Shown here: positions 8,547 to 14,043 of the stretch, one piece after another
Position numbering within the stretch: position 1 is the first letter of the stretch
Layout: each line of letters starts with the position of its first letter
Assembly (NCBI GenBank): GCA_016937995.1
Contig: JAFGVM010000040.1
Location: 1 to 39,643, forward strand
Source of the DNA: Candidatus Delongbacteria bacterium
GTDB taxonomy: Bacteria > UBA4055
Reading direction: 5' to 3'
Length of the DNA stretch: 39,643 nucleotides
Made by a program: the position numbers and the translations under genes
The notes under the pieces: model-generated
Database searches by the model: none
What the model was told of the DNA's origin: nothing
What the model saw: the letters and a program-made list of their open reading frames with translations, nothing else

Positions 8547-9035
8547 ATGAGAAAATTTACATTATTATTGATCGTAGTTCTATCGTTGTCATTTTTGGGT
8601 TGTGGTGGAAAGACAGCTGAAAAAGAAGCAATTAAGACTAATGACACCCCAGATCCTGCTACTGAGACAGTAGAGAAGAAGTTACCTGAAGGTTATCCTG
8701 AAGAATTGGTTATTCCATTTGACCTTGGAAAGAGAATGACAACCGGTGATGGTACCGGAAAACAAACTATTACTAAAGATGGAGAAATGTCTTTCGGGAA
8801 AGAGCGTAATTTTAAATCTTTCAATGTATGGCAAAGTATGCCAAAACAAGTACCTGAGATAATCAGTCATTTTAAAAAACTTTTTACTGATCTTCAGTAT
8901 GAAGGTGTATGGAAAGGTGAAGAAAATAATGCATACGGTGTTTTCAAGAAAGATGATAACGAAATTGAGATCCATATTTCTGAAGACCAATTTAAATTTG
9001 GTTTGAAGATCTGGGATGTTCAAGTCTTAAAATAA
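8547..9035 (+). CDS. Small lipoprotein of unknown function
   Basis: A 162-residue protein with a lipoprotein signal peptide: MRKFTLLLIVVLSLSFLGC, lipobox LSFLGC, lipidated Cys at 19. A low-complexity charged linker follows, then a ~100-residue domain beginning LPEGYPEELVIPFDLGKRM. No family is assigned with confidence. An AAAGGAG site precedes the ATG. It is 17 bases upstream of another lipoprotein gene on the same strand, and both probably use the promoter at 8459. Confidence 0.7.
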   Translation: MRKFTLLLIVVLSLSFLGCGGKTAEKEAIKTNDTPDPATETVEKKLPEGYPEELVIPFDLGKRMTTGDGTGKQTITKDGEMSFGKERNFKSFNVWQSMPKQVPEIISHFKKLFTDLQYEGVWKGEENNAYGVFKKDDNEIEIHISEDQFKFGLKIWDVQVLK

Positions 9036-9052
9036 AAATTGAGAGGGATAAA

Positions 9053-10144
9053 ATGAAATCTTTTTTGGTTGTTGTATTAATCATTTTGCTTTGCTTATTC
9101 AGTTGTTCTAAAAATGAACAATATCAGAAAAAAAATATAAATGGTGTTGAAGCAATATTTAATAAAAATATCCCTTCTGATAAAAACTTTAAAATTGATC
9201 TTAAAGACGAAGTCATATTGGATTTATCAAAACAGGATACTCTTAACCAAAATTTCTCTTTATCCAGAATGTCAGATGTAATACTGGATAAAGTTGGCAA
9301 CATCTATGTCCTTGATGATAGAAAATCTAAAATATTCAAGTTTGATTCAACAGGAGAATTTAAGAAAGAATTTGGGAACAAAGGAAGTGGACCTGGGGAA
9401 TTTATTAATACATATCCTGGTAGAATAGCTATCATCGACAATACACTATATGTTACATCCAGAGATCATCAAAAAGTAGTAAAATTTGATCTTGATGGTA
9501 ATAGTATCGGAGAAAAAAGATTTGATAGTCAAAGAAAATTTCCAAGAACGTTCAAAAAAACTGGTAAATATATTTGCGGTAACATATTTACATTTATAAG
9601 TGATACCGAACTTGAGAGGGAATTAGGATTGTTTGATTCAAACTTTGATTTGATCCAAACTTTCTACAAAGACATTTATGATATGAGAGAAAAAAACCTA
9701 AGTGTACCAGAAGAAGTATCATTAGCTGTTTCAAGCACTAATGATGTTTATGTGCCTGAATATAGTACTAATTCATATAAAATTAATGTATTCGATATGA
9801 AAGGTAACAAAAAAAGCATTATACAAAAGAATTACAGAGCAGTACCGTATTCACAGAAGGAATTAGATGACCTAAAAGATCTTTATGGTCAGTATCAAAT
9901 GAACGTTACAGGTAAAATGAAAAATGCAATTGAATATATACAACTTGATAAATTTGATCGTTTATGGGTTTTAACAGCAATGTGCGAAAAATCTAACACT
10001 TCAACTTTTGATGTCTTTAAAGACGGGATATTTCTTAATTCTGTCGAACTGGGTAATGACAGCACAACATTTGCATATTTCATGGAAGATAAACTAATGT
10101 TCATTGATTTTGAAAACACGATCATAAAATTCTACAATTATTAG
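9053..10144 (+). CDS. 6-bladed beta-propeller lipoprotein (NHL-like)
   Basis: A 363-residue protein with a lipobox near residue 18 (LLCLFSCSKN), so it is probably an envelope lipoprotein. The body shows repeated propeller blades: DVILDKVGNIYVLDDRKSKIFKFDSTGEF, then a KEFGNKGSGPGEF signature typical of the 6-blade/NHL families, then NTLYVTSRDHQKVVKFDLDGN and DKFDRLWVLTAMCE. Such proteins are abundant in Bacteroidetes and relatives; their ligands are mostly unknown. GAGAGGG lies before the ATG. It is downstream of and close to the 162-residue lipoprotein gene, probably the same operon. Confidence 0.8.
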   Translation: MKSFLVVVLIILLCLFSCSKNEQYQKKNINGVEAIFNKNIPSDKNFKIDLKDEVILDLSKQDTLNQNFSLSRMSDVILDKVGNIYVLDDRKSKIFKFDSTGEFKKEFGNKGSGPGEFINTYPGRIAIIDNTLYVTSRDHQKVVKFDLDGNSIGEKRFDSQRKFPRTFKKTGKYICGNIFTFISDTELERELGLFDSNFDLIQTFYKDIYDMREKNLSVPEEVSLAVSSTNDVYVPEYSTNSYKINVFDMKGNKKSIIQKNYRAVPYSQKELDDLKDLYGQYQMNVTGKMKNAIEYIQLDKFDRLWVLTAMCEKSNTSTFDVFKDGIFLNSVELGNDSTTFAYFMEDKLMFIDFENTIIKFYNY

Positions 10145-10166
10145 GATTATTCAGCGGCTTGCTGGG

Positions 10167-11108
10167 TTATAGAGTTTGAACATATTCAATAGTGATCTGA
10201 GTATATGAATCTAAAGGTAATTTATAAATATCTTTAGCATTATTATAGCTAATGTAACAATTTATAAAAAGTTTTGACAAGGTTGATAGATCACATTCTA
10301 CATTAATACAATTACCATTCTTGTCATATGTGTATTCTGTCTTATATTTTGCTTTTCCAATTTCATCTTCCTGGTACAACAGTATCCCGGAACCATCATA
10401 AATAAAATTTGTTTTATGCCTTCTACTATTCTCTCCGCTTCCTCCGACCTCTTATGAGTTTATTAATCTCTTATTATGATCGTAAGTATCTGTTTTTATA
10501 TAATCGGACTTCCATGATGGTTTATCCCATTTAACCTTCATATAATAATCCCATACAAACTTCTTAAAAGATTGCAAATTCCCATCATTATCGTAGGTAT
10601 ATTCTGTTTTAATACTATTGGTCCATTTGTCATTATTGAACTGTTCTGAAGTTTCGATCAGCAGTTTTCCATCATTATTCAGAGTACAATTAGTTCTTGT
10701 AGAATCCTTCCATGAGTCATCTGTCCATATTTCGTATATTTCTTTTATCCTGTTTCCTTTGTAGTCGAGAGTATAATTTGTCCGAGCACTGTTTGCCCAT
10801 TCATTTCCGATCCATAACTGCCAAAGAACTTTCAGTATATTTCCGTTATCATCAAGAAGATATCTTATTTTATTAGTATTTTCCCAGGCATTGTTATTCC
10901 AGGTTTGGTATAGTTCATTCAGCAGATTTCCATTACTGTCGTATTCGTATTCTACCCTGTTATCATTAAATAAATTAGCCTTGAAAGGATAAAGTTTCTC
11001 TGATATATATTTTTCTTTTATATTGCAAATTTCTTTATCCGAATTGTCATAGGTAAATGTTATTCTACTTGAGTTTTCGATCTGTATTATAGAAGGTTTG
11101 TATGTCAT
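10167..11108 (-). pseudogene. YD-repeat-like protein, interrupted by in-frame stop and lacking a signal peptide
   Basis: The minus strand from 11108 reads 218 residues containing four or five ~34-residue repeats of the form YEYDSNGN..-W-x-N-x-W, as in RHS/YD-type secreted proteins of FCB bacteria. A TAA at 10452-10454 interrupts it. The same frame then stays open for another 94 codons with recognisable repeat sequence (TNFIYDGSG, TEYTYDKNGN) to a stop at 10167. One base change (for example CAA to TAA) would explain the break. The frame has no ribosome site or signal peptide, and an in-frame stop lies just upstream, so the 5' part also appears lost. Confidence 0.65.
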
Positions 11109-11173
11109 TGGTTTGTGTTCAGTTTGTATTTATGTGTTGCCATTAAAAAATTGCAAGTCGGTTATTTAGCAAA

Positions 11174-11770
11174 TTAACTTCGTGCAAATTTTAGTAATGG
11201 TTTTATATCATCCTGATCGGCTGCTTTTACAGCATCAATGTATACTTTTCTTGTATCGCTTTGAGGAGTTAAATTGGTTTTACTCCAGGTAAACACTTTG
11301 CCGTTAAACCCATGTGAGATCAATATATCACCACATAATCTAGAATGTCTACCGTTACCATTAGGAAATGGATGTATCTTGACCATTCTGTGTTTGAATC
11401 TAACTGCAATCTCATCCTCTGAATATGTTTTATTTCTTATCCAATATCTACAATCATCAATTAAATATTTTAATTCTGTTGCGATCTGAAATTTATCTAC
11501 ACCTATATTTTTATTGGTTTTCCTAAATTTACCTGCCCATCCCCAAACATCACAGAACATTTTTTTATGGACATCGCAAATAAATTTTTCTGATAAAATT
11601 TCATCAAGCTTGAATTTTCTTTTAAAAGTCCAGGCAACAGCATCTTCAATATTGTTTTGTTCAAATTCGTCCAGTTCACCCTTGGAGGATATTGTTTTGA
11701 TCAACAGTCCTTCTCTCTCCTCCTCCGATATCGGAGTCTGTCCGTTTTCATAAATAAGTTCTAATCCCAT
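11174..11770 (-). CDS. Mobile mystery protein B (Fic/Doc family)
   Basis: A 198-residue Fic-domain protein. The catalytic motif HPFPNGNGRHSR is complete at 133-144, with His133, so AMP- or other nucleotide-transfer activity onto a target protein is plausible. The N-terminal MGLELIYENGQTPISEEEREGL and overall length fit the mobile mystery protein B family, which is always found beside mobile mystery protein A. An N-terminal S-E-E-E-R-E-G stretch is near, but does not exactly match, the S/TxxxE(G/N) inhibitory motif. The start overlaps the A gene by 10 bases, so the two are co-translated. Confidence 0.85.
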   Translation of the reverse strand: MGLELIYENGQTPISEEEREGLLIKTISSKGELDEFEQNNIEDAVAWTFKRKFKLDEILSEKFICDVHKKMFCDVWGWAGKFRKTNKNIGVDKFQIATELKYLIDDCRYWIRNKTYSEDEIAVRFKHRMVKIHPFPNGNGRHSRLCGDILISHGFNGKVFTWSKTNLTPQSDTRKVYIDAVKAADQDDIKPLLKFARS

Positions 11771-12219
11771 AGATACTTCGGCATCTCCCTTTTGATCTCT
11801 TCAGCTCTTTCTTTTACAGCCTTTTTTAATCTTGCTTCAGAATTTTTCTGATCTTCTAGACTCATATTCACCGACGTACGGTTCACTATATCCTTTGCGA
11901 TCTCATAAGCTCTCTTTTCGATCATGTTTTCAAGTGATCCTTCGTTTGGAATAAATCCGTAAACGAATTTCATGTTCATTACCTCAGCATACTTTTTCAG
12001 ACCACTAAGAGTAATTGAACCTTCTACTTCTCTTTGCTCAATCTGATTAGCCGCTTGCTTAGACATTCCTAATTTTTTACTTAATTGGCTCAAAGACATA
12101 TTCAAGGCTGATCTTATCGCATTAATCCAACCACTTTTAGGCACAGTAACACCTTTCGCTTTTTTTAAATAATTTATTTTTTGATCAGTTTGATGTAATA
12201 ATAGTTTTGTTTTTTTCAT
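11761..12219 (-). CDS. Mobile mystery protein A (HTH DNA-binding protein)
   Basis: A 152-residue protein with an XRE-type helix-turn-helix at about 41-62 (MSLSQLSKKLGMSKQAANQI), preceded by a WINAIRSALN segment typical of this family. The C-terminal half is a charged helical region. By family, it is the upstream partner of the Fic protein and sits on mobile or accessory DNA more often than not. It probably represses its own promoter through the palindromes at 12279-12361. The ATG at 12219 follows CTAGGAATGATTACTT. A toxin-antitoxin-like role for the pair is inference. Confidence 0.85.
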   Translation of the reverse strand: MKKTKLLLHQTDQKINYLKKAKGVTVPKSGWINAIRSALNMSLSQLSKKLGMSKQAANQIEQREVEGSITLSGLKKYAEVMNMKFVYGFIPNEGSLENMIEKRAYEIAKDIVNRTSVNMSLEDQKNSEARLKKAVKERAEEIKREMPKYLWD

Positions 12220-12253
12220 AAGTAATCATTCCTAGCTATATTTTATCAAATAC

Positions 12254-12283
12254 AATATAACTATACAATCATATCTTTGTCAA
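12254..12283 (-). promoter_or_regulatory. Promoter of mobile mystery A/B genes, -35 inside an operator
   Basis: On the minus strand TTGACA (12278-12283) is followed by an 18-base spacer and TATATT (12254-12259), about 35 bases before the start at 12219. The -35 hexamer lies inside the first palindrome (12279-12296), which would let a bound repressor block RNA polymerase. Confidence 0.5.
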
Positions 12284-12361
12284 GCAATAACTTGACATAC
12301 ATGGAATTTTGTCAAGTAATATCTTGACGTATACGACTATTTTATCAAGCAATAACTTGAC
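12279..12361. promoter_or_regulatory. Three palindromic operator-like sites GTCAAG-N6-CTTGAC
   Basis: Copies lie at 12279-12296 (GTCAAGCAATAACTTGAC), 12311-12328 (GTCAAGTAATATCTTGAC) and 12344-12361 (ATCAAGCAATAACTTGAC). Start-to-start spacing is 32 and 33 bases, about three DNA turns, so all sites lie on one face. They sit between the divergent mobile mystery A and threonine synthase genes. The symmetry fits a dimeric HTH protein. Confidence 0.75.
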
Positions 12362-12508
12362 GTTTAATCTTGTTTTATTCTTTAAATATGAGCTTTTGTA
12401 TCAACCTTGCCCCTATCCCCTAAAAAAATTCCTTGCAAATAAATCCTCATTCTCTTATCATTTAACTTCTCAAGAATGATATAATTAATTAAAATAAAAG
12501 GGTAAAAA

Positions 12509-13873
12509 ATGCAAAAACCTATCACTTACTACTCAACAAATCTCAAAGCTGAACCTGTATCATTCAAGGATGCACTCTTAAAAGGTATCGCACCTGACAA
12601 AGGTCTTTATATGCCTTTTGACATTCCTCAGTTCACTAAAGATGAGATAAATGCTTTTGCTGATAAGGAATATTACGAAATAGCTTATGAAGTCATTCAT
12701 AAATTTCTTAAAGACGACATTCCTGCTGATGACCTGAAAGAACTTGTAAAAGATGCTTATAACTATGAAGTTCCTTTGGAAAAAGGTTATGACAGAAAGT
12801 ATGTTCTCAGACTTGATCAGGGACCTACTGCTTCATTCAAGGATTTCGCTGCAAGAATGATGGGTAGACTGATGAATTATTATCTGCAGAGACAACATAG
12901 AAAATTATTGATACTAACAGCTACATCAGGTGATACCGGAAGTGCAATAGCAAATGCTTTTTACGGTTTAAATAATATAAAAGTTGTCGTGCTATTCCCT
13001 GAGAATGAAGTTACGAACAGACAAAGAAAACAAATGACCACTTTAGGTGATAATGTTCAGATCATTTCTCTTGATGGAAAATTCGATGATTGCCAGGCTC
13101 TTGTGAAAGAAGCCTTTGTAGATATTGAACTTGACCATCTGGGACTTTCTTCTGCAAACTCTATCAATATTGGAAGATTGATACCTCAGACAGTTTATTA
13201 CTTCTATGCTTACGCTAAATTAAAGCAGAGTAATGACGAAAAAGTCATCTTTTCAGTTCCTTCAGGTAACTTTGGTGATATGATGGGTGGTGTTATAGCT
13301 ATGAAAATGGGACTTCCTGTAGAAAAATTCATTATTGCAACCAATGAAAATGATGAATTCCCTAAATATCTTAATACTGATAAATATGAACTTGTGGTAC
13401 CTTCAAAGAATTGTATCTCAAGTGCTATGAACGTTGGGCATCCAAGTAATATGTCCAGACTTGTAGCTTTATACAGCGGAATAATGAATGAAAAAGGCGA
13501 AGTTCTTAAAGCTGCGGATATGGATCTGATGAGAAAAGAAATATGGTCTGTAAGTATTGACGATGCTCATACAAAAGAAACTATAGTTGATGCGTGGAAT
13601 AAGCATCAATTACTACTGGAACCTCACGGTTCTGTAGGTTGGGCAGGTCTTCATAAGTATTTAGATGAAACCGGTGATGACAAAGACCAGCTTTATGTAT
13701 CTCTGGAAACTGCACATCCTGCAAAATTCCCTGAAGAGATCACAAGATTATTGAACATAGATCCTGATCTTCCAAAAAGCCTTGAAGGAATTGAAGAAAA
13801 AGAAGAGCAGTATGACACGATCACAACGAAATACGAAGATTTCAAAGCATATTTGCTGAAGAATTATAAGTAA
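12509..13873 (+). CDS. thrC: Threonine synthase
   Basis: A 454-residue PLP enzyme converting O-phosphohomoserine to threonine. The N-terminus ITYYSTNLKAEPVSFKDALLKGIAPDKGLYMP is characteristic of the long (E. coli/yeast type) threonine synthases. The PLP lysine is Lys111 in GPTASFKDFAARM, and the phosphate-binding TATSGDTGSAIANAF motif follows at about 137. The C-terminal HGSVGWAGL and ETAHPAKFPEEI segments are also family hallmarks. The ribosome site is AAAGGGT. It is followed at 171 bases by the ApgM-like gene, which may supply its substrate. A composite palindrome lies in the gap. Confidence 0.95.
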   Translation: MQKPITYYSTNLKAEPVSFKDALLKGIAPDKGLYMPFDIPQFTKDEINAFADKEYYEIAYEVIHKFLKDDIPADDLKELVKDAYNYEVPLEKGYDRKYVLRLDQGPTASFKDFAARMMGRLMNYYLQRQHRKLLILTATSGDTGSAIANAFYGLNNIKVVVLFPENEVTNRQRKQMTTLGDNVQIISLDGKFDDCQALVKEAFVDIELDHLGLSSANSINIGRLIPQTVYYFYAYAKLKQSNDEKVIFSVPSGNFGDMMGGVIAMKMGLPVEKFIIATNENDEFPKYLNTDKYELVVPSKNCISSAMNVGHPSNMSRLVALYSGIMNEKGEVLKAADMDLMRKEIWSVSIDDAHTKETIVDAWNKHQLLLEPHGSVGWAGLHKYLDETGDDKDQLYVSLETAHPAKFPEEITRLLNIDPDLPKSLEGIEEKEEQYDTITTKYEDFKAYLLKNYK

Positions 13874-13972: not shown

Positions 13973-14043
13973 AACATAAGGAACGCAGGAATGCGTTCTT
14001 TAACCATCAACCAACAACCAGTAACCTGTAAGGAACTCACACA

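What the first reader, a model, noticed from the sequence alone, without database searches (positions are those of the whole stretch)
12254..12361. Triple palindromic operator between a mobile mystery A/B pair and thrC
Seen: three GTCAAG-N6-CTTGAC palindromes spaced 32 and 33 bases, the first covering the -35 of the mobile mystery A promoter. The third also places TTGACG pointing toward thrC. Known: mobile mystery protein A is an HTH protein always paired with the Fic protein B. Inference: A represses its own operon cooperatively and may touch thrC expression. The control circuit of this family is, to my knowledge, not described.
Basis: partly seen in the sequence, partly recalled or inferred. 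Interest (0 to 1): 0.65.

Follow-up and report, generated by a model that had tools for sequence, protein, structure and literature searches.

The report
Self-addressed triple operator of Fic pair
A widespread pair of bacterial genes (a DNA-binding protein and a Fic-type toxin-like enzyme) carries in front of it three evenly spaced copies of a mirror-image DNA address which, by comparison of about 150 relatives, is almost certainly the landing pad of its own DNA-binding protein: the address changes between relatives in step with the protein's DNA-reading helix while the spacing of 32-33 bases stays fixed.

Summary
The palindromes are real: 12279-12296 and 12311-12328 are exact, 12344-12361 has one mismatch, spacing 32 and 33 bp. 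The first covers the -35 box of the mobile mystery A promoter. A search of 124 non-redundant mobile mystery A loci (Bacteroidota, Delongbacteria, Marinimicrobia, alpha- and gammaproteobacterial plasmids) found the same architecture, at least three palindromes at 32/33 bp, in 105, against 1 of 620 control windows from the same loci. A further 31 loci gave 29. The palindrome sequence differs between clades and follows the recognition helix of protein A. A simple residue-to-base code, fixed beforehand, predicted the operator in new loci (19/21 at position -4, 26/28 at -5). So protein A very probably binds these arrays before its own operon, as an autorepressing HTH antitoxin would. The array stays when the Fic partner is replaced by a fused nucleotidyltransferase. 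The thrC part is not supported: a same-genus genome lacks the cassette, and thrC keeps its own conserved promoter there. The general mechanism (HipB-like autoregulation) is known; this family's operator design and specificity code were not found in the held literature. DNA binding, repression and toxicity are inferred, not shown.

The parts
12279..12296 (.). Operator 1 (proximal to mmA), GTCAAGCAATAACTTGAC; covers the -35 box of the mmA promoter
12311..12328 (.). Operator 2, GTCAAGTAATATCTTGAC, 32 bp from operator 1
12344..12361 (.). Operator 3 (distal), ATCAAGCAATAACTTGAC (one mismatch), 33 bp from operator 2
12254..12283 (-). Predicted mmA promoter: -35 TTGACA (12283-12278), 18-nt spacer, -10 TATATT (12259-12254)
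   Evidence: 11 of 12 consensus matches
11761..12219 (-). mobile mystery protein A, 152 aa, Cro/C1-type HTH (recognition helix about residues 53-64, SKQAANQIEQRE), long C-terminal helices; proposed repressor/antitoxin
   Evidence: TIGR02612 E=8.8e-43, HTH_3, AF2 mean pLDDT 92
11174..11770 (-). mobile mystery protein B, 198 aa, Fic domain with HPFPNGNGRHSR motif; proposed AMP-transferring toxin, overlaps the end of mmA
   Evidence: TIGR02613 E=2e-73, Fic PF02661, PDB relatives NmFic/FICD/VbhT
12433..12461 (+). thrC's own promoter (TTGCAA-17-TATCAT), conserved in a same-genus genome without the array; not part of the operator system
9037..12423 (.). Segment absent between the homologous neighbours in same-genus genome G011 (mmAB, its array, an RHS-repeat-like ORF and a beta-propeller ORF); outer limits approximate

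Best explanation
The three palindromes are the operators of mobile mystery protein A, the HTH partner (proposed antitoxin/repressor) of a Fic enzyme. Dimers of A read each palindrome with the N-terminal half of the recognition helix (residues 54, 55, 56 and 59 reading positions -9, -6, -5 and -4 from the dyad). Occupancy of the site on the promoter blocks transcription of mmAB. The two further sites, three helical turns apart on the same DNA face, let A dimers (alone, or bridged by B or by the long C-terminal helices) bind cooperatively, so that repression is steep and is released when free A falls. Shown by comparison: the array, its fixed spacing, its register with the promoter, and the co-variation of operator and helix. 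Inferred: binding itself, repression, cooperativity, and the toxin-antitoxin role.
For: Three-site chains at 32/33 bp lie upstream of 105 of 124 non-redundant A genes (score over the 99th percentile of shuffles; 86 beat every one of 372 shuffles), against 1 of 620 control windows from the same loci and 1-17 of 124 for unrelated spacings; 29 of 31 in a second sample. An unbiased mutual-information scan of the aligned columns of A against nine operator positions puts recognition-helix residues K54, A56, Q59 and Q55 among its top six couplings. Operator distance follows helix distance after removal of the distance of the rest of the protein (partial r 0.384; best of 2000 random column sets 0.217; other HTH columns 0.049). 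The code written down predicted new loci: residue 59 19/21 (permutation p 0.0014), residue 56 26/28 (0 of 5000 permutations). L176, helix SKQAAQK, has GTCAACTTA against SKQAANQ and GTCAAGTTA in the window, while its nearest relative in the first set (56% identical) has TTAAGGCTA. The Bacteroidota -7 box TAnnTTTG starts exactly 6 nt from a site centre in 36 of 57 loci that have the box. B follows A in 125 of 141 loci, 99 in the same close overlap register.
Against: No binding, footprint or expression data. Phylogenetically independent pairs on supported branches are few (2-5 per trait) and not significant, although nearly all agree in direction. About 15% of loci in the first set show no array by this score. 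Residues 55 and 54 could not be tested out of sample (too little variation). The canonical Fic-inhibiting motif [S/T]xxxE[G/N] is not conserved in A or B, so how A would neutralise B, or whether it does, is open.
Confidence: 0.87

Rival explanations
1. The array regulates both divergent operons: A also controls thrC, with TTGACG of the third palindrome as a thrC -35.
For: The array lies between the divergent genes and TTGACG at 12357-12362 points toward thrC.
Against: No acceptable -10 follows. thrC in same-genus genome G011 (92% identical protein) has the same promoter, aligned from window position 12424 on, with no array and no mmAB. The three other relatives whose thrC upstream region was printed also lack this array.
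Confidence: 0.05
2. The palindromes are bound by a host regulator or by a partition or replication protein, and A has nothing to do with them.
For: Tandem palindromes also occur as partition and replication sites (own knowledge); many homologues are on plasmids.
Against: The palindrome differs between relatives within one phylum and follows the recognition helix of A, which a host factor's site would not; in the own genome no second cluster exists.
Confidence: 0.04
3. A binds the array but as an activator or as a switch (different sites repressing and activating), not as a plain repressor.
For: Sites lie both on the promoter and up to two spacings upstream of it; HTH controllers of restriction systems do both (own knowledge).
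Against: In Bacteroidota a site occupies the spacer between the -33 and -7 boxes and in the window the -35 box itself, positions expected of a repressor.
Confidence: 0.12
4. The three palindromes are a chance cluster or a recombination remnant at the edge of an inserted segment.
For: The array lies within about 65 bp of the point where similarity to the empty site resumes.
Against: Same layout upstream of 105 of 124 and 29 of 31 homologues in unrelated contexts; 1 of 620 in control windows.
Confidence: 0.01

Closest known systems
E. coli HipB/HipA operator array
   Same: Cro/C1-type HTH antitoxin, several palindromic operators (four, TATCC-N8-GGATA) over its own promoter, cooperative binding, toxin as co-repressor (review PMC3920265). 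HipB-DNA structures are among the Foldseek matches of the A model's HTH.
   Different: Toxin is a kinase, not Fic; A has long extra helices outside the HTH that matched no solved structure here; the array is conserved at 32/33 bp over several phyla with a diverging palindrome, for which no HipB counterpart was looked for here.
Phd/Doc, YhfG-Fic and VbhA/VbhT (Fic-family toxin-antitoxin modules)
   Same: Small two-gene module with a Fic-fold enzyme (B is related in sequence to NmFic, FICD and VbhT).
   Different: Antitoxins are not Cro/C1 HTH proteins (own knowledge; YhfG per PMC2701414); the inhibition motif [S/T]xxxE[G/N] of VbhA-like antitoxins is not conserved here.
434 repressor/Cro recognition of ACAA-type operators
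   Same: Helix of the same type; the coupled residues 55, 56 and 59 fall where 434 repressor has Gln29, Ser30 and Gln33 (own knowledge) and couple to neighbouring bases in order.
   Different: Palindromes are longer (18 bp with coupling out to -9) and spaced 32-33 bp.
MntA/HepT (MNT-HEPN) modules
   Same: In a Delongbacteria relative A is fused to an MNT nucleotidyltransferase and followed by HepT, with an operator array upstream.
   Different: The window's own module has Fic, not MNT/HEPN.

Membership tests
mobile mystery protein A (TIGR02612) / B (TIGR02613) | Scores over the curated model cut-off | tested here: met
   A 145.8 bits (cut-off 122.6), B 246.3 (124.4)
mobile mystery protein A (TIGR02612) / B (TIGR02613) | A and B encoded together, A first | tested here: met
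   Overlapping genes in the window; B downstream in 125 of 141 homologous loci
Type II toxin-antitoxin module of the Fic/Doc kind | Fic catalytic motif HPFx[D/N]GNGRxxR in the toxin | tested here: met
   HPFPNGNGRHSR in window B; 115 of 125 relatives keep HxFx[D/N]GNGRxxR, though most have Cys instead of Pro at position 2
Type II toxin-antitoxin module of the Fic/Doc kind | Fic inhibition motif [S/T]xxxE[G/N] in antitoxin or toxin | tested here: not met
   Found in 15 of 124 A C-terminal parts and 5 of 125 B N-terminal parts, not conserved
Type II toxin-antitoxin module of the Fic/Doc kind | B is toxic and A neutralises it | not testable with these tools
   No experiment; earlier papers assume it from neighbourhood (PMC3936711; PMC8649781)
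HTH-antitoxin autoregulated operon (HipB-like) | Antitoxin-specific palindromic operators over its own promoter | tested here: met
   By comparison only: array with promoter overlap and helix-operator co-variation
HTH-antitoxin autoregulated operon (HipB-like) | Measured repression and cooperative binding | not testable with these tools
   Phasing on one DNA face only suggests it
HipB family proper | HipA kinase as partner | tested here: not met
   Partner is Fic; A hits TIGR02612 as its only NCBIfam family

The most novel reading that the evidence does not exclude
Mobile mystery A is a partner-independent control cassette (HTH protein plus its own three-site address) that is combined with different AMP-transferring systems (Fic, or MNT with HepT), and whose operator specificity diversifies by a readable residue-to-base code while the 32/33-bp lattice stays fixed because a higher-order A (or A-B) assembly requires it. 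This would give many mutually insulated copies of one regulatory circuit.
Probability: 0.45. Interest if true: 0.72.

Novelty: new variant of a known kind. Interest (0 to 1): 0.62.

Why it matters
A family met in about one in ten sampled Bacteroidota genomes and on many rhizobial and Vibrio plasmids still bears the name 'mystery'. The comparison gives it a concrete, testable circuit, says which protein reads which DNA, and supplies a natural set of well over a hundred repressor-operator pairs with the same geometry and different specificity, useful for studying how antitoxin operators diverge and stay insulated. It also makes a precise guess about the family (autoregulated Fic toxin-antitoxin) open to simple tests.

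Tried and rejected
Exact GTCAAG palindrome as a family signature: absent from close relatives L003-L005, which first looked like a refutation until other palindromes with the same spacing were seen. Phage origin: no match in 50,697 phage records and one locus in viral contigs. thrC co-regulation: rejected by the empty site in G011. Fic inhibition motif as support for a VbhA-like antitoxin: not conserved. Fold search of A: only the HTH part (residues about 24-91) matches solved structures, Z below 8; no match for the C-terminal helices was listed, which is no evidence that their fold is new. Independent-pairs test: too few supported pairs to decide. A claim for Actinomycetota would rest on one locus (L142) that did not pass the score.

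Full report
Observation. The region 12254-12361 was read directly. Three 18-bp palindromes lie at 12279-12296, 12311-12328 and 12344-12361, 32 and 33 bp apart; the third has one mismatch. The gene on the minus strand next to them is mobile mystery A (11761-12219, TIGR02612), followed by mobile mystery B (11174-11770, TIGR02613, a Fic protein); on the other side lies thrC (12509-13873). A strong sigma-70-type promoter for mmA (TTGACA-18-TATATT, 11 of 12) has its -35 box in the first palindrome. In the whole genome the core TCAAG-N6-CTTGA occurs 11 times, the same as its control; three of these 11 are this cluster, the others are scattered. Nearest relatives are Candidatus Delongbacteria.

Homologues. 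Close relatives in the same phylum lack this palindrome, although their A proteins are 62-68% identical. Their recognition helices differ, which suggested that the operator might differ too. Eighty A loci from public genomes, more from whole-genome searches and 18 plasmid loci were collected; 124 remained after removal of near-duplicates. A blind search for the best repeated palindrome pair upstream of each start codon gave spacings of 32 or 33 bp in 77 of 124, where shuffles are flat. With three sites required at 32/33 bp, 105 of 124 pass the 99th percentile of shuffles and 86 beat all 372 shuffles. The same search on 620 other windows of the same loci passes once; unrelated spacings pass in 1-17 of 124. 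Most loci have three sites, some four to six. Proteobacterial plasmids of Vibrio, Shewanella, Thiothrix, Agrobacterium, Bradyrhizobium and Megaera have the array too.

Who binds. The palindrome differs between clades: AAGGYTATARCCTT-like in many Bacteroidia, GTAAAGTAATAGCTTTAC in Sediminibacterium, GTATACATA half-sites in marine Flavobacteriaceae, GTAAACATA in others, GTATCTAAA in Vibrio and Shewanella, GTCAAGTTA here. A scan of the aligned columns of A against all nine half-site positions puts the recognition-helix residues 54, 56, 59 and 55 among its top six couplings. Residue 59 Lys/Arg goes with C at -4 and Glu with G; residue 56 Ser/Thr with G at -5 and Gly/Ala with A; residue 55 Gln with A at -6 and Gly with T; residue 54 Lys/Arg with G at -9. 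The link survives correction for the rest of the protein (partial Mantel r 0.384; 0 of 2000 random column sets reach it). On supported branches of a tree built without the HTH, independent contrasts are few but nearly all agree in direction. The code was written down and then tested on 31 new loci from two further searches: 29 of 31 have arrays, residue 59 predicts 19 of 21 and residue 56 26 of 28. One of them, L176, has nearly the window's helix (SKQAAQK against SKQAANQ) and nearly the window's operator (GTCAACTTA against GTCAAGTTA), although its closest relative in the first set has TTAAGGCTA; the single base that differs is the one that residue 59 (Lys for Gln) predicts.

How it probably works. 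In Bacteroidota the -7 box TAnnTTTG starts exactly 6 nt after a site centre in 36 of 57 loci that have the box, so an operator sits in the promoter spacer. In the window an operator covers the -35 box. Spacing of 32-33 bp is close to three turns of B-DNA, so the dimers stand on one face. This points to cooperative autorepression by A. The AlphaFold2 model of A (mean pLDDT 92) has an HTH domain like those of HipB, HigA, SinR and DdrO plus long helices outside it, which may join dimers or hold B; that is inference. mll2066 of Mesorhizobium loti, annotated as mobile mystery B, is listed with a value of 4.02 among heat-shock responsive genes (PMC3989490), which would fit a derepressible operon but does not test it.

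Partner swap. In two Delongbacteria A is fused to an MNT nucleotidyltransferase domain (PF01909), in one followed by HepT (PF01934), with no Fic gene found downstream; arrays remain upstream, with modest scores (6.83 and 7.00). Of the A genes without any partner in view several have no array; the numbers are small.

thrC. A same-genus genome has thrC (92% identical) directly behind a homologue of the gene at 8547-9035. The alignment resumes at window position 12424, includes the promoter at 12433-12461, and contains neither mmAB nor the array. The array belongs to the cassette, and thrC needs no part of it.

Relation to known systems. HTH antitoxins that repress their own operons from several palindromes are known, HipB being the closest. 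Fic toxin-antitoxin modules are known, but with non-HTH antitoxins (and own knowledge). TIGR02612 has been called an antitoxin in passing because it lies next to Fic (PMC3936711), and TIGR02613 is counted as Fic/Doc cargo of Tn7-like elements (PMC8649781). No paper in the held library describes operators or regulation of this family; subscription papers are mostly not held.

Noticed in passing
L012:2336-3434 and L014:741-1520: Mobile mystery A fused to an MNT nucleotidyltransferase domain instead of paired with Fic; in L012 a HepT gene follows. The control module seems to change partners between AMP-transferring systems.
   Followed up: partly
window 9037-12423: About 3.4 kb (beta-propeller DUF5128 ORF, RHS-repeat-like ORF, mmB, mmA, array) absent between homologous neighbours in same-genus genome G011 (L149): a gained or lost segment.
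   Followed up: partly
window 13980-13998; L003:1250-1268: Palindromic element GGAACGCAGGAATGCGTTC shared, near CCCGATAAATCGGGA, by two Delongbacteria genomes, possibly an interspersed repeat family.
   Followed up: no
mmB of relatives: Most mobile mystery B proteins have HCFPNGNGRHSR, with Cys instead of the usual Pro in the Fic motif; the window has the usual HPF.
   Followed up: no
L014:241-573: C-terminal part of an AbiEii-type nucleotidyltransferase directly upstream of the A-MNT fusion.
   Followed up: no
L137:1-1967 (Shewanella sp. ANA-3 plasmid): mmAB directly downstream of the Qat anti-phage gene qatD; window B also matches the PADLOC candidate defence family PDC-S04.
   Followed up: no
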